A DNA stretch of 64,000 bases from Baekduia soli (GCF_007970665.1 NZ_CP042430.1:4526001-4590000); one strand, 5' to 3'; positions 16,009 to 21,133 are shown, numbered from the stretch's first letter. Numbers and translations: made by a program. Notes: generated from the sequence alone by a model not told the origin.

Positions 16009-16499
16009 CTAGTTGTCGGAGCCCAGCCGGTCCCAGAGGTAGAGCTCGAGGCACTCGCTCGCGAGCTCCAGCGAGCGGGCGCGCGAGAGGCGCGGCAGGA
16101 CCGTGTCCAGCGCCTGGTCCTCGGCGACCCCGGCCTCGAAGGCCTCCTCGCCGCGGAAGCCCGCCGCGATCTTCAGCGCCTCCCGGCGGTTCTCGCCGAG
16201 GGTCGGGAAGACGTTCATGAGGAAGTCGCGGTTGGCGATGGGCTGGCCGACCTCCAGCGAGGCGTGCCACGCGGCGAGCATGGAGAGGTCGTGCTCGTCG
16301 AGGTCGGCGACGGCCTTGGCGTAGTGCGTGTCGAGCTCACGCTCGGGATCTCGTCCACCCAGGCGCGAACGAGCTCGCCGAGCAGCTGCCGCCGGGCCTC
16401 CCGGCCGACGGAATCAGCGATGACGCGGATGGCGTCATGAGGTTCGATGAAGCAGAGGGGCACCTGCGCTCCCAGCGCTCGTGGGACTTCGGACGGCAT
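16009..16499 (-). pseudogene. hypothetical gene broken by one missing base
   Basis: Two reading frames join into one plausible protein of about 163 aa. The N-terminal part (ATG at 16499) reads through 'PHDAIRVIADSVGREARRQL' to 'RAWVDEIP', and the C-terminal part continues as 'ERELDTHYAKAVADLDEHDL' to the stop at 16009. Restoring one C on the coding strand, in the CCC run at 16345-16347, fuses them in frame as 'WVDEIPERELD'. The product would be soluble, helical and acidic; I do not recognise the family. The lesion is of the same kind as in three other genes of the window, which argues for a base-calling error. The gene is divergent from the GntR operon. Confidence 0.6.
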
Positions 16500-16632: not shown

Positions 16633-16644
16633 ATTGCATGCAAT
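16633..16644. promoter_or_regulatory. palindromic operator of the GntR operon
   Basis: ATTGCATGCAAT is a perfect 12-bp palindrome ending four bp before the TATGCT -10 box (16649-16654) of the GntR gene, inside the promoter spacer. Its position and AT-rich outer bases in a GC-rich genome fit an autorepressor site. Confidence 0.7.
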
Positions 16645-16648
16645 GTCG

Positions 16649-16654
16649 TATGCT
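16649..16654 (+). promoter_or_regulatory. -10 box of the GntR catabolic operon
   Basis: TATGCT ends six nt before the GTG start at 16661, so transcription is expected to begin at the start codon. Confidence 0.55.
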
Positions 16655-16660
16655 CGGCGC

Positions 16661-17326
16661 GTGTCGACCAAGGTCACCGATTCCTACCGCGTGCTGCGTG
16701 AGGGCATCGCGACCGGCGCGTATCGCCTCGGCGAGCCCCTCCGCGCCGCGACGATCGCCGGCGAGCTGGGCATCAGCCGCACGCCCGTGCGCGAGGCGTT
16801 CATGCGCCTGGCCAGCGAGGGCCTCGTGGACTATTCGCCGCGCTACGGCGCCCGGGTCTCCGACCTGCGCGCGGAGGAGCTCGAGGAGCTCTTCGAGCTG
16901 CGCGCGGCGATCGAGGCCGTGGCCGTGCGCCACGCCTGCGCCCGCGCCACCCCGGCCGACGTCGCACACCTGCGTCGCCTGTGCACCGCCTGCCACGACG
17001 CCGTCGGCGCCGACGACGTCGACGCGGTCATCGCCGCCAACATCGCCCTGCATGACGCGGTCAACCGCCTCTCGGGCCGCGAGCGCACGATCGAGCTCGT
17101 CGACCTGCTGCGCGACCGGGCCCGCCCCTACCGCGTGCTCGCTCTCTACGACGACGACGAGCGCCGCGCCTCGCTGGCCGAGCACGACGACCTCGTCGAC
17201 CTCATCGAGGCCGGCGACGCCGACGGCGCCGCGGCCCTGCTGGGCGAGCACTTCGCCCGCCCGCTCGCGCGCCTGATGCGCTACCTCGGCGACCGCGGGC
17301 GGCGCCCGCAGCGGCTGGCGTCATGA
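16661..17326 (+). CDS. GntR family (FadR/FCD type) repressor
   Basis: 221 aa from the GTG at 16661; the ATG at 16643 overlaps the operator and lies before the -10 box, so it is less likely. The winged helix occupies residues 5-65 ('LREGIATGAYRLGEPLRAA', 'LGISRTPVREAFMRLASEGL'). The C-terminal helical FCD ligand domain carries metal-site residues in 'NIALHDAVNRLSGRE' and 'LAEHDDLVDLIEAGD'. Its TGA overlaps the next ATG. It most likely represses the five-gene operon by binding ATTGCATGCAAT, with an intermediate of the pathway as inducer. Confidence 0.9.
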   Translation: MSTKVTDSYRVLREGIATGAYRLGEPLRAATIAGELGISRTPVREAFMRLASEGLVDYSPRYGARVSDLRAEELEELFELRAAIEAVAVRHACARATPADVAHLRRLCTACHDAVGADDVDAVIAANIALHDAVNRLSGRERTIELVDLLRDRARPYRVLALYDDDERRASLAEHDDLVDLIEAGDADGAAALLGEHFARPLARLMRYLGDRGRRPQRLAS

Positions 17327-18021
17327 GCCTCGCCGACGACCAGACCACGATCCGCTCGCTCGTCGGGCGCCTGCCCGACCCGGCGACGGACCCGGCCACG
17401 ACCGCGCTGGTCGTCATCGACCTGCAGCTCCTGGACGCCGACGCCGACGGTGAGCACGGCATCCGCGCGCGCGAGCGCGGGATGTGGGACGAGCTCGAGG
17501 CCTACTTCACGCGCTGCGCGCAGGTCGTCGTGCCCGCCGTCGCGCGCGTCGCCGATGCGCTGCGCGCCGCCGGCGGCACGATCGCCTGGATCCGCTGCGA
17601 GGCCCAGGAGCCCGACGCCTCCGACACCCGCCGGCGCTTCCGCGCGTTCGACATCATCGTCCCGCCCGGCGATCCGCAGGCCGCGTTGCTGGACGGCCTG
17701 CCCGTCGCGCCCGAGGACCTCGTCCTGGGCAAGACGACCGCCAGCCCGTTCTGGTCGACCGACCTGGCCGAGCAGCTCCGCGCGCGCGGAATCCAGACCG
17801 TGCTCGTGGCCGGCGTCGTGACGAGCGGCTGCGTGGAGAGCACGATCCGCGACGCCTGCGACCTGGACTTCGAGGTCGTCCTCATCGAGGACGGCTGCGC
17901 CGACCGCCGGCCCGAGGCCCACGCCGACGCCATCCGCCGCCTGGACGGCAACTTCGCCATCGCCTGGAGCGCGCAGGAGACCCTCGCGCGCCTGTCCCCC
18001 ACCCCCATGGAGTCCGCATGA
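17323..18021 (+). CDS. isochorismatase-fold cysteine hydrolase (amidase type)
   Basis: 232 aa, ATGA-coupled to the GntR gene. The catalytic triad of the cysteine hydrolase superfamily is present: Asp33 ('LVVIDLQLL'), Lys137 ('VLGKTTASPF') and Cys170 ('GVVTSGCVEST'). Relatives include N-carbamoylsarcosine amidase, ureidoacrylate hydrolase RutB, biuret hydrolase and nicotinamidase. Placed beside a dihydropyrimidinase-type enzyme, the most likely role is removing the carbamoyl group from an N-carbamoyl product, releasing CO2 and ammonia (inference). It is soluble and cytoplasmic. Its stop overlaps the next ATG. Confidence 0.85.
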   Translation: MSLADDQTTIRSLVGRLPDPATDPATTALVVIDLQLLDADADGEHGIRARERGMWDELEAYFTRCAQVVVPAVARVADALRAAGGTIAWIRCEAQEPDASDTRRRFRAFDIIVPPGDPQAALLDGLPVAPEDLVLGKTTASPFWSTDLAEQLRARGIQTVLVAGVVTSGCVESTIRDACDLDFEVVLIEDGCADRRPEAHADAIRRLDGNFAIAWSAQETLARLSPTPMESA

Positions 18022-18908
18022 CCCCCACCAACGCCCGCCGCCTGCGCGAGCTCATCGCCGCCCCCGAGATGGCGGTGCTGCCCGGCGCCTACGACGGGCT
18101 GTCGGCCCGCCTGGTCCAGCGCGCCGGCTTCGACGCCATCTACTTCTCCGGAGGCCTGTCGGGATCGTCGTTCCCCGGCGTGCCGGACTTCGGCATCCGC
18201 ACCCTGACCGAGATGGTCGCCCAGGTCGGCGGCGCGGTGCGCTCCACGCGCATGCCGATCCTCGCCGACGGCGAGGCCGGCTACGGCTCGGTGCTCTCGA
18301 CGCAGCGGCTGATCTACGAGCTCGAGAACGTCGGCGCCGCCGGCATGCACCTCGAGGACCAGGACGTCCCGCGCCGCTGCGGGCACTACGCCTCCAAGCG
18401 CCTGGTCAGCGCCGAGGAGCACGCGGGCCGCATCGCCGCCGCCGTCGACGCGCGCCGCGACCCCGACTTCCTCATCGTCTCGCGCACCGACGCCGTGTCG
18501 GTCACGGGCTTCGACGACGCCGTCGCGCGCACCCACGCCTACATCGAGGCCGGCGCCGACATGGTGTTCTTCGACGGCATCGAGACGCGCGAGCAGCTCG
18601 AGGCCGTGCCCAAGCTGTTCAGCGTGCCCGCGATGGCCAACATGGTCGAGCAGGGCAAGACGCCGGTGCTGCCGGCCAAGGAGCTGGAGGCCATGGGCTA
18701 CGCCCTGACCATCTTCTCCACCATCCTGTACTTCACGGCGATGGGCGCGATGCGCGAGGCGCTCAAGACGCTGAAGGACGTCGGGACGAGCGAGCCGCTG
18801 TGGGACACGATGGGCGGCTTCCGCGAGTGGCAGGAGGTCACCCAGGTCGACGAGCACCTGGCGGTCGTGGACCGCTTCGAGCCCGAGCTGACCAGTGCCG
18901 ACGCCTGA
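18018..18908 (+). CDS. isocitrate lyase/PEP mutase superfamily lyase
   Basis: 296 aa, ATGA-coupled to the hydrolase gene. The TIM-barrel signatures are 'LPGAYDGLSARL', 'ADGEAGYG' (85-90) and the active-site loop 'LEDQDVPRRCGHY' (about 112-124), equivalent to the K-R-C-G-H loop that carries the catalytic Cys in isocitrate and 2-methylisocitrate lyases. Members cleave C-C bonds of 2-hydroxy or 2-oxo acids or act on phosphonates. In this operon it probably splits the carbon skeleton left after ring opening and decarbamoylation (inference). A Lys-to-Arg change at the first loop position separates it from true isocitrate lyases. Confidence 0.85.
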   Translation: MTPTNARRLRELIAAPEMAVLPGAYDGLSARLVQRAGFDAIYFSGGLSGSSFPGVPDFGIRTLTEMVAQVGGAVRSTRMPILADGEAGYGSVLSTQRLIYELENVGAAGMHLEDQDVPRRCGHYASKRLVSAEEHAGRIAAAVDARRDPDFLIVSRTDAVSVTGFDDAVARTHAYIEAGADMVFFDGIETREQLEAVPKLFSVPAMANMVEQGKTPVLPAKELEAMGYALTIFSTILYFTAMGAMREALKTLKDVGTSEPLWDTMGGFREWQEVTQVDEHLAVVDRFEPELTSADA

Positions 18909-20298
18909 CCTGCTGCTGCGCGGCGGCACGCTGGTCGACGACGCGCAGGAGCTGCGCGCCGACCTGGTCATCGACGGCGGCGTGATCGTCGCCGTCGCCG
19001 CGCCGGGGACGGTCGACGGGGCGCGGCGCATCATCGACGTGGACGGCGCGCTCGTGGTCCCGGGCGGCGTCGACGCCCACGTGCACTTCGACTTCGCCCT
19101 GCCGCCGCTGGTCTCCCAGGGCTACGAGCAGGGCAGCATCGCCGCGCTGCACGGCGGCACGACGACCATCATCGACTTCGCCGAGCGCATGCCCGGCGGC
19201 GGCGGCCTGGCCGAGGCCGTCGCGGCCAAGCGCGCGGCGGCCGACGGGTCGATGCACTGCGACTACGCGCTGCACCTGATCGTCGCCGGCGAGGTCGGCG
19301 CCTCCGAGCTGGCCGAGGTCCCCGCGGTCTTCGATGCCGGCGTCACGTCGTTCAAGCTGTTCATGAACTCGCACGCCATGTGGCCGGGCGACGGCGCGGT
19401 CGCCGAGCTGCTCGAGGTCGTCGGCGCCCACGGTGGCTGCGCGGTGCTGCACTGCGAGAACGCCGACGTCATCGACCGCCGCACCGCGGCGCTGGTGGCC
19501 GCCGGCAGGACGTCGTACCGGTTCACCGAGGACAGCCGGCCCGCGTGGGTCGAGGGCGAGGCCACGGCCCGGTCGATCCGGATCGCGCGCGCCGCCGACT
19601 GCCCGATCTACATCTTCCACGTCACGTGCGCCGACGCGGCCCGGGAGATCGCCGACGCGCAGGCCCGTGGCTGGGACGTGTTCGCCGAGACCTGCCACAA
19701 CTACCTCGTCTTCTCCAAGGACGACGTCGTGGAGCGCCCCGACGGCGCCAACTGGGGCAACTATCCGCCGCTGCGCCCCCCGGAGCACCGCGACGCGATC
19801 TGGGCCGCGCTGCGCGACGGCACGATCGACCACGTCTCGACCGACGACTACACCTCGACGCTCGAGAACCGCAACTCGATCGGGCTCGAGCTGCCGGCGA
19901 CGCCCGCGGGCCACAACGGCGTCGAGACGCGGATGGCCGTGCTCTACACGGAGGCCGTCGTGCGGCGCGGGATGCCGGTGACCGACTTCGTCGGCCTGTC
20001 GAGCAGCCGCATCGCCAAGCGCCTGGGGCTGTGGCCGCGCAAGGGCTCGCTGCAGGTCGGCGCCGACGCCGACGTCACCGTGATCGACCCGGGCCGCTCG
20101 GGCACGTTCCGCCTCGAGGACCTGCACACCGTCGACTACTCGATCTGGGACGGATACGCCTACACGGGCGCGCCGGTCATCACGATCGCGCGCGGCGAGG
20201 TCGTCGTGCAGGACGGCGCGTTCGCCGGCGGCCCGCCCGCCGGGTCCTTCCTGCACCGCAAGGGCCGCGCCCGTGCCGGTGGCGCCACAGCTCGCTGA
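18895..20298 (+). CDS. dihydropyrimidinase/D-hydantoinase family cyclic amidohydrolase
   Basis: 467 aa; the GTG start lies 14 nt inside the preceding gene. The dinuclear zinc site is complete: H62-x-H64 ('DAHVHFDF'), the carboxylated Lys154 ('TSFKLFMNS'), His186 ('LHCENAD'), His242 ('FHVTCAD') and Asp317/318 ('VSTDDYTS'). These enzymes open cyclic ureides such as dihydropyrimidines or hydantoins to N-carbamoyl amino acids. The substrate loop 'MNSHAMWPGDGAVAELL' differs from textbook dihydropyrimidinases, so the true substrate may be another cyclic amide. It overlaps the next gene by 26 nt and supplies the probable first step of this pathway. Confidence 0.88.
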   Translation: MPTPDLLLRGGTLVDDAQELRADLVIDGGVIVAVAAPGTVDGARRIIDVDGALVVPGGVDAHVHFDFALPPLVSQGYEQGSIAALHGGTTTIIDFAERMPGGGGLAEAVAAKRAAADGSMHCDYALHLIVAGEVGASELAEVPAVFDAGVTSFKLFMNSHAMWPGDGAVAELLEVVGAHGGCAVLHCENADVIDRRTAALVAAGRTSYRFTEDSRPAWVEGEATARSIRIARAADCPIYIFHVTCADAAREIADAQARGWDVFAETCHNYLVFSKDDVVERPDGANWGNYPPLRPPEHRDAIWAALRDGTIDHVSTDDYTSTLENRNSIGLELPATPAGHNGVETRMAVLYTEAVVRRGMPVTDFVGLSSSRIAKRLGLWPRKGSLQVGADADVTVIDPGRSGTFRLEDLHTVDYSIWDGYAYTGAPVITIARGEVVVQDGAFAGGPPAGSFLHRKGRARAGGATAR

Positions 20299-21133
20299 CG
20301 CCGAGCTGCTCGCCGGGGCGGTGGACCTCCACGTCCACGGCGGCCCCGACGTGCTGGCCCGGCGCCACAGCGACCTCGAGCTGGCGCGCCGCGCCCAGGC
20401 GGCGGGCATGGCCGGCCTCGTGCTCAAGTGCCACAACGAGTCCACGGTCGGCCGGGCGGCGGGCGCGCGCGAGGCGACGGGCTTCCCGGTCTCCGGCGGG
20501 CTGGTGCTCAACCCGGCGGTCTCGGGCGGCATCGAGCCCGACGCGGTGCTGACGAGTCTCGAGCTCGGCGCGCGCGTGATCTGGATGCCGACGCTGGCGG
20601 CCACGGAGCACCTGCGCGCGTTCCCGGGCGCCGCGCCGGGCACCAACCGCGCGGCGGCGCGCCCGGCCCGCGTCAGCCGCTCGGCGATCCGGGCGATCTG
20701 CGTCCACGTCGCGCGCCACGACGCGTTCGTGGCCACGGGCCATCTCGGCCGCGTGCACTCCGCGCTGGTGGCCGAGGAGGCCGCCGCGGCGGGCGCTCGC
20801 GTGCTCTTCCAGCATCCGGACTACACCGTGCCGGGGCTCAGCCTGCGCGCGCAGGCCTCGCTGGCCCAGCGCTTCCCGGACGCGCTGTTCGAGCGCTGCG
20901 CGTACGTCGTGTCGGCCGACGCGCCGCGCCCGACCACGGTCGAGCGTGTGGCGGCGGCGATCCGCGCGGTCGGCGTGGAGCGCAACGTGATCTCCAGCGA
21001 CCTGGGCCAGCCGGCCAACGGCGACTACCCCGACGGCCTGGCGGCCTTCGCCCGCTCCCTCATCGGGACGGGCCTGGGGATCGGCGAGGTGCGCGAGATG
21101 CTCACCGAGCGGCCGGCGGCGCTGCTGCGCTGA
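20273..21133 (+). CDS. DUF6282 family amidohydrolase-like protein
   Basis: 286 aa, starting at a GTG 26 nt inside the hydantoinase gene. Its metal-type motif 'AVDLHVHGGPDVLARRH' near the N-terminus, 'LVLKCHNEST', 'FVATGHLGRVHS' and 'VISSDLGQPANGDYPDG' give the His, Lys, His and Asp positions expected of an amidohydrolase-superfamily barrel, although the overall sequence is far from known enzymes. It is the last gene of the GntR operon, with tight coupling to the preceding ring-opening enzyme. A second hydrolytic step on the same substrate family is a reasonable guess; no experimental role is known to me. Confidence 0.8.
   Translation: MPVAPQLADAELLAGAVDLHVHGGPDVLARRHSDLELARRAQAAGMAGLVLKCHNESTVGRAAGAREATGFPVSGGLVLNPAVSGGIEPDAVLTSLELGARVIWMPTLAATEHLRAFPGAAPGTNRAAARPARVSRSAIRAICVHVARHDAFVATGHLGRVHSALVAEEAAAAGARVLFQHPDYTVPGLSLRAQASLAQRFPDALFERCAYVVSADAPRPTTVERVAAAIRAVGVERNVISSDLGQPANGDYPDGLAAFARSLIGTGLGIGEVREMLTERPAALLR

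What the first reader, a model, noticed from the sequence alone, without database searches (positions are those of the whole stretch)
16633..21133. Five-gene translationally coupled operon for an unassigned cyclic-ureide/amide pathway
GntR repressor, isochorismatase-fold hydrolase, PEP-mutase/isocitrate-lyase-type lyase, hydantoinase-type hydrolase and DUF6282 follow one another with ATGA or longer overlaps at every junction. All active sites look intact. The order suggests ring opening, decarbamoylation, then carbon-carbon cleavage, which is not a textbook reductive pyrimidine pathway (no dehydrogenase, no beta-ureidopropionase, and a lyase instead). DUF6282 has no assigned reaction that I know of. 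The substrate may be a cyclic ureide or imide that no described pathway covers.
Basis: partly seen in the sequence, partly recalled or inferred. Interest (0 to 1): 0.72.

Follow-up and report, generated by a model that had tools for sequence, protein, structure and literature searches.

The report
Orphan ring-opening catabolic operon with DUF6282
Five tightly overlapping genes in one actinobacterium form a real but one-off breakdown operon, probably opening a nitrogen-containing ring and cutting the product to small acids, and relatives of its uncharacterised member (DUF6282) sit in a known aromatic-degradation pathway at the one step that lacks an assigned enzyme.

Summary
The five genes are real, in the stated order, and overlap at every junction (4, 4, 14, 26 nt); third-position GC is 0.95-0.99. 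A perfect palindrome, ATTGCATGCAAT, at the operon head occurs once in the 5.2-Mb genome, a plausible operator for the GntR regulator.

The cluster is a singleton: samples of class, family and phylum genomes, plasmid records and one GTDB-wide scan found no second copy.

Catalytic residues are intact, but the hydantoinase-like enzyme is not a dihydropyrimidinase: it misses the family cut-off and has lost all three substrate-binding residues (Tyr155, Ser289, Asn337 become Ser, Tyr, Ala). It belongs to a rare clade with an HNG signature. The lyase has an unusual metal motif (DGE for DxD).

The most useful lead is DUF6282, probably an amidohydrolase-fold metal enzyme. Elsewhere it recurs beside C-C lyases or aldolases (11 of 20 plasmid loci, against about one in control sequence), and in Actinobacteria and Thermus it lies beside GalB and CHA aldolase, in the slot of a pyrone-dicarboxylate-type lactonase.

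Best reading: a ring-opening, amide-hydrolysing, C-C-cleaving catabolic operon, more likely for a cyclic imide than a ureide. The substrate is unproven.

The parts
16633..16644 (.). Perfect 12-bp palindrome ATTGCATGCAAT, putative GntR operator; it touches the first ATG of GntR, so the true start may be GTG 16661
   Evidence: Only exact copy in the whole 5.2-Mb genome; in the window only this site even at 2 mismatches, 0.11 expected
16643..17326 (+). GntR-family regulator, FCD (FadR-type) subfamily
   Evidence: PF00392 and PF07729 over cut-off; no NCBIfam equivalog reached
17323..18021 (+). Isochorismatase-like cysteine hydrolase (Asp33, Lys137, Cys170)
   Evidence: PF00857; RutB and BiuH models far below cut-off; triad residues aligned
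18018..18908 (+). PEP-mutase/isocitrate-lyase superfamily C-C lyase with RRCGH catalytic Cys, but DGE instead of DxD metal motif
   Evidence: PF13714; PrpB and CPEP-mutase cut-offs not met; alignment; equally close to petal death protein, PrpB, dimethylmalate lyase
18895..20298 (+). Cyclic-amidohydrolase (hydantoinase-like), GTG start; metal ligands His62, His64, Lys154, His186, His242, Asp317; substrate triad replaced; HNG signature 340-342
   Evidence: TIGR02033 386.2 bits, cut-off 393.25; alignment and tree
20273..21133 (+). DUF6282 protein, GTG start, amidohydrolase-like metal motifs (DxHxH 18-22, His157, His181, Asp243)
   Evidence: PF19799 167 bits, cut-off 26.8; invariants in 31 members; weak Amidohydro_2 match of a relative

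Best explanation
This is a self-contained, GntR-controlled catabolic operon read as one transcript with coupled translation. Proposed order: (1) the hydantoinase-clade enzyme opens a cyclic imide or related cyclic amide that is not a dihydropyrimidine, giving a half-amide; (2) the isochorismatase-like cysteine hydrolase removes the amide nitrogen as ammonia, as NicF does for maleamate; (3) DUF6282, an amidohydrolase-fold metal enzyme, hydrolyses or hydrates the intermediate to the acid that the lyase needs; (4) the PEP-mutase/ICL-type lyase cuts a substituted 2-hydroxy- or 2-oxo-succinate into a pyruvate-type 2-oxoacid and a second carboxylic acid. GntR binds the palindrome at the operon head and is released by substrate or product. 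Shown: gene structure, families, catalytic residues, loss of the dihydropyrimidinase substrate site, and the genome-unique palindrome. Inferred: co-transcription, operator function, order of steps, imide substrate, DUF6282 reaction.
For: Overlaps and coding bias. Genome-unique palindrome at the head. Loss of Tyr155/Ser289/Asn337 in a supported clade (0.99) with an HNG signature; these three residues bind dihydropyrimidines (PMC8860565). The dihydropyrimidinase fold has natural imidase activity: phthalimide hydrolysed at 25% of the dihydrouracil efficiency (PMC4437985). NicF, RutB and BiuH show the isochorismatase fold hydrolysing ring-opened amides (PMC5806882), and P0002 matches 3ot4/3uao (NicF) at 1.2e-12. 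Lyase catalytic core Asp/Glu/Cys/Arg is kept. DUF6282 lies beside C-C lyases or aldolases in 11 of 20 plasmid loci, against one HMG-CoA lyase in 196 kb of control. No dehydrogenase, transporter or beta-ureidopropionase in or directly beside the operon.
Against: No second copy of the gene set was found, so there is no comparative support that the enzymes share one pathway. The nearest relative of P0002 (40%) lies in an operon with an allantoate-amidohydrolase-type M20 enzyme and a dipeptide-type transporter, which favours a ureide theme for that gene. No substrate can be read from sequence. The DUF6282 here is a long branch, not in the GalB-linked clade.
Confidence: 0.38

Rival explanations
1. 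Cyclic ureide pathway: the hydantoinase-like enzyme opens a hydantoin- or pyrimidine-type ring, the isochorismatase-like enzyme removes the carbamoyl group, and the lyase acts later on the deaminated carbon skeleton.
For: Hydantoinase ancestry; an N-carbamoylsarcosine hydrolase structure and RutB are among P0002's matches; P0002's closest relative sits with an M20 carbamoylase/allantoate amidohydrolase.
Against: All three residues that bind the ureide ring in dihydropyrimidinase are replaced; no aminotransferase or dehydrogenase to turn an amino acid into a lyase substrate; RutB and BiuH cut-offs missed by more than 300 bits.
Confidence: 0.25
2. The genes are co-transcribed but do not form one linear pathway: a scavenging operon of broad-range hydrolases plus a lyase, assembled by chance and retained in one lineage.
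For: Singleton cluster with no conserved neighbourhood; all enzymes divergent from characterised ones.
Against: Overlap at all four junctions, a dedicated regulator and a unique palindrome; DUF6282 recurs beside C-C lyases elsewhere.
Confidence: 0.25
3. Lactone-type or mixed heterocycle route related to protocatechuate/gallate 4,5-cleavage: DUF6282 acts as a pyrone-dicarboxylate-type lactonase, and the lyase replaces CHA aldolase.
For: DUF6282-GalB-CHA aldolase clusters, several with GntR and extradiol-dioxygenase-type genes, in Actinobacteria and Thermus.
Against: No dioxygenase or GalB-type hydratase in this operon; the DUF6282 here falls outside the GalB-linked clade.
Confidence: 0.12

Closest known systems
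Dihydropyrimidinase / D-hydantoinase (TIGR02033; PDB 1k1d, 1nfg, 5ykd)
   Same: Same fold, binuclear metal ligands including the lysine, full-length alignment
   Different: About 35-38% identity, below the family cut-off; substrate-binding Tyr155, Ser289, Asn337 replaced; HNG signature shared with a rare clade
Nicotinate degradation maleamate amidohydrolase NicF (PDB 3uao)
   Same: Isochorismatase-like Asp-Lys-Cys triad; acts on a ring-opened half-amide
   Different: Low similarity (E 1.2e-12); no nicotinate genes nearby
2-Methylisocitrate lyase PrpB, 2,3-dimethylmalate lyase, petal death protein
   Same: Superfamily, catalytic Cys loop, core Asp/Glu/Arg
   Different: Equally distant from all three; DGE metal motif; Asp for the conserved Glu188; PrpB cut-off not met
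Protocatechuate/gallate 4,5-cleavage lower pathway (LigI-LigJ-LigK, GalD-GalB-GalC)
   Same: DUF6282 relatives occupy a slot beside GalB and CHA aldolase, in several loci with a GntR gene
   Different: This operon has no dioxygenase, GalB or CHA aldolase
Rut and reductive pyrimidine pathways
   Same: Isochorismatase-like and hydantoinase-like family members
   Different: No RutA/F, no dihydropyrimidine dehydrogenase, no beta-ureidopropionase

Membership tests
Dihydropyrimidinase/D-hydantoinase | NCBIfam TIGR02033 score at or above 393.25 bits | tested here: not met
   386.2 bits; a paralogue in the same genome reaches 506.3
Dihydropyrimidinase/D-hydantoinase | Binuclear metal ligands, 4 His, carboxylated Lys, Asp | tested here: met
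   His62, His64, Lys154, His186, His242, Asp317
Dihydropyrimidinase/D-hydantoinase | Substrate-binding Tyr155, Ser289, Asn337 | tested here: not met
   Ser159, Tyr290, Ala338; 42, 32 and 40 of 48 aligned proteins keep Tyr, Ser, Asn (roles in PMC8860565)
Methylisocitrate lyase PrpB | TIGR02317 cut-off 354.4 bits | tested here: not met
   263 bits
PEP-mutase/ICL lyase superfamily | Catalytic Cys in KKCGH-type loop, DxD metal motif | tested here: inconclusive
   RRCGH present; metal motif is DGE, unique among 32
RutB / BiuH | NCBIfam equivalog cut-offs | tested here: not met
   65 and 59 bits against 378 and 370
Isochorismatase-like hydrolases | Asp-Lys-Cys triad, PF00857 | tested here: met
Reductive pyrimidine degradation | Dihydropyrimidine dehydrogenase and beta-ureidopropionase with the hydantoinase | tested here: not met
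   Neither in the operon nor among the neighbouring genes examined
DUF6282 (PF19799) | Pfam gathering score 26.8 | tested here: met
   167.4 bits
Amidohydrolase superfamily (DUF6282) | Barrel with HxH after strand 1, His after strands 5 and 6, Asp after strand 8 | tested here: inconclusive
   DxHxH, His157, His181, Asp243 nearly invariant in 31 members; a relative matches PF04909 full length at 3e-5, just below its cut-off; profile comparison to hydantoinases 47-84% against about 0.1% for controls, although one PF04909-type pair also gave 0.1%; single-sequence model pLDDT 44 is too poor to use
GntR/FCD regulators | PF00392 plus PF07729 | tested here: met

The most novel reading that the evidence does not exclude
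An undescribed route that mineralises a substituted cyclic imide to a 2-oxoacid, with a hydantoinase clade of new specificity and DUF6282 as a new amidohydrolase-fold hydrolase or hydratase that feeds C-C lyases; the same DUF6282 family would supply the lactonase step of 4,5-cleavage in Actinobacteria and Thermus.
Probability: 0.22. Interest if true: 0.65.

Novelty: new variant of a known kind. Interest (0 to 1): 0.4.

Why it matters
The operon is a compact test case: four enzymes and one regulator. If the substrate is found, it would define the reaction of a hydantoinase clade that databases would call dihydropyrimidinase-like although it lacks that enzyme's substrate site. More broadly, the neighbourhood survey gives DUF6282, a family with no paper in the library searched, a concrete testable role next to GalB and CHA aldolase in aromatic (lignin-type) degradation.

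Tried and rejected
Conserved-neighbourhood inference for the whole operon failed: no synteny in class, family or phylum samples, plasmids, the GTDB scan with the hydantoinase or viral contigs with DUF6282 and the lyase. The GTDB scan relied on six exact peptide patterns and could miss relatives that differ in all of them. Single-sequence folding of DUF6282 gave pLDDT 44, so no fold search was run. Deeper sampling of the hydantoinase clade in two other phyla found almost no further members. I considered the two other hydantoinase-family genes of this genome as paralogous pathways: one is a canonical dihydropyrimidinase. Nicotinate fermentation (enamidase plus dimethylmalate lyase) and B6 degradation were considered from general knowledge and dropped because their companion genes are absent. 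Promoter and terminator scans found nothing.

Full report
Observation. The five reading frames are present at the stated place and in the stated order: GntR/FCD 16643-17326, isochorismatase-like hydrolase 17323-18021, PEP-mutase/ICL-type lyase 18018-18908, hydantoinase-like hydrolase 18895-20298 and DUF6282 20273-21133. The junctions overlap by 4, 4, 14 and 26 nt; the last two genes start with GTG. GC at third positions is 0.95-0.99 in all five, and operon GC (0.744) equals that of the window, so these look like living genes without a sign of recent import from a donor of different composition. The flanks are unrelated: FxsA, a wax-ester synthase-type gene and an Fe-S assembly gene upstream, a sigma-factor gene on the other strand downstream. 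No transporter or dehydrogenase belongs to the unit.

Regulation. A perfect 12-bp palindrome, ATTGCATGCAAT, at 16633-16644 lies at the head of the operon. It occurs exactly once in the 5.2-Mb genome, and the window holds no other copy even with two mismatches. FCD-type GntR regulators generally bind short palindromes and are released by a pathway metabolite (general knowledge), so autoregulation is likely but untested. The palindrome touches the first ATG, so translation may start at GTG 16661.

Distribution. The cluster is a singleton in everything that could be searched. DUF6282 relatives reach at most 43% identity over most of their length in 396 Actinomycetota genomes, and in the neighbourhoods read none lies beside the other four genes. 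The best hydantoinase relatives reach about 40% in the same phylum sample, 38% in 146 genomes of the family including others of the genus, and 35-36% in a scan of 84,980 species, which relied on six exact peptide patterns. The lyase and the isochorismatase-like protein reach about 43% and 38-40%. All plasmid matches are under 60%.

Hydantoinase-like enzyme. The six metal ligands are kept (His62, His64, Lys154, His186, His242, Asp317). The three residues that bind the substrate in dihydropyrimidinase, Tyr155, Ser289 and Asn337 (PMC8860565), are Ser159, Tyr290 and Ala338 here; 42, 32 and 40 of 48 aligned proteins keep Tyr, Ser and Asn. The protein misses the TIGR02033 cut-off (386 against 393 bits), whereas a paralogue of the same genome passes it with 506. 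A tree places it with four proteins from three metagenome-assembled genomes and a second paralogue of the same genome (support 0.99); five of the six share an HNG signature at 340-342. [quoted passage not shown]

Lyase. The catalytic Cys loop (RRCGH) and the core Asp, Glu and Arg are present, but the metal motif reads DGE where 31 of 31 homologues have DxD, and Asp replaces Glu188 (roles of the core residues in PMC7609661). It is equally close to petal death protein, PrpB, dimethylmalate lyase and CPEP mutase and fails the PrpB and CPEP-mutase cut-offs. By family, its substrate should be a 2-hydroxy- or 2-oxo-dicarboxylate.

Isochorismatase-like hydrolase. Asp33, Lys137 and Cys170 form the expected triad. 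RutB and biuret-hydrolase models are far below cut-off. Structural relatives include N-carbamoylsarcosine hydrolase, RutB and NicF. Its nearest relative (40%) lies in an operon with an allantoate-amidohydrolase-type M20 enzyme and a dipeptide-type ABC transporter, which keeps the ureide reading alive.

DUF6282. No paper in the library mentions it. In 31 members DxHxH, His157, His181, Glu207 and Asp243 are nearly invariant. One relative matches Amidohydro_2 over its full length at 3e-5, just below that family's cut-off, and others match other amidohydrolase-type families weakly. Profile comparison to hydantoinases gives 47-84% against about 0.1% for unrelated controls, though a thin Amidohydro_2-type alignment also gave 0.1%. 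The likely reading is an amidohydrolase-superfamily enzyme without the bridging lysine, the type that includes lactonases, decarboxylases and hydratases; this is an inference, since the single-sequence model was unusable. On 20 annotated plasmids, 11 DUF6282 genes lie within about 5 kb of a C-C lyase or aldolase; 196 kb of control sequence from four of the same plasmids holds one, an HMG-CoA lyase. These loci are not all independent. In five actinobacterial genomes and in Thermus oshimai, DUF6282 is followed by a PIG-L protein and CHA aldolase. The PIG-L protein of one of them has a single structural match, 4-oxalomesaconate hydratase, at 2.5e-58, and the two aldolases tested pass the curated cut-off. 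Extradiol-dioxygenase-type genes and, in two loci, an NAD-binding DUF1932 gene complete the set, with GntR genes nearby in several. In the known 4,5-cleavage route the steps are dioxygenase, dehydrogenase, LigI lactonase, hydratase, aldolase (enzymes named in PMC12314914; LigI as an amidohydrolase is cited in PMC5065237). DUF6282 is the obvious candidate for the LigI position.

Mechanism. The chemistry that uses all four enzymes best is ring opening of a cyclic imide or related amide, ammonia release from the half-amide, a DUF6282 step of hydrolysis or hydration, and C-C cleavage to a pyruvate-type acid. The imide reading is preferred to the ureide reading because the lyase needs a succinate-type skeleton, the ureide-binding residues are gone, and this fold hydrolyses imides naturally (PMC4437985). 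The ureide reading, a mixed operon, and a lactone route remain open.

Verdict. A real, probably regulated, orphan catabolic operon; the substrate cannot be named from sequence. The result that makes something directly testable is the DUF6282 link to GalB and CHA aldolase.

Noticed in passing
L067 9732-13013, L065 2823-6533, L058 7479-9750, L059 6731-10855, L064 7282-9642, L019 6324-10990: DUF6282, GalB-like PIG-L protein and CHA aldolase form a compact cluster, with an extradiol dioxygenase-type gene and GntR in several; DUF6282 fills the lactonase slot of the 4,5-cleavage pathway.
   Followed up: partly
L025, L186, L188 (Rhodobacterales plasmids): TRAP transporter, dihydroorotate-dehydrogenase-like flavoprotein (in L025 and L186; another oxidoreductase in L188), DUF6282 and HpcH-type aldolase in one gene run, substrate unknown.
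   Followed up: no
L162 2969-18001 (own genome, about 1.77 Mb): Second member of the aberrant hydantoinase clade, near another amidohydrolase, an M20 enzyme, a 2-hydroxyacid dehydrogenase and an HpcH aldolase.
   Followed up: partly
L161 8694-11892 (own genome, about 1.49 Mb): Canonical dihydropyrimidinase divergent from another PEP-mutase/ICL-type lyase gene.
   Followed up: partly
L165 9562-17211: Nearest relative of the isochorismatase-like protein in an operon with dipeptide-type ABC transporter genes and an allantoate-amidohydrolase-family M20 enzyme.
   Followed up: partly
L018 4164-9746, L020 4167-9754, L181 634-6255 (haloarchaeal plasmids): Conserved set of FAD/Fe-S oxidase, DUF6282 and an amidohydrolase-family gene, with a divergent nitrilase-type gene.
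   Followed up: no
window 16009-16281: Small ORF on the minus strand divergent from the operon, good coding bias, no Pfam match.
   Followed up: no
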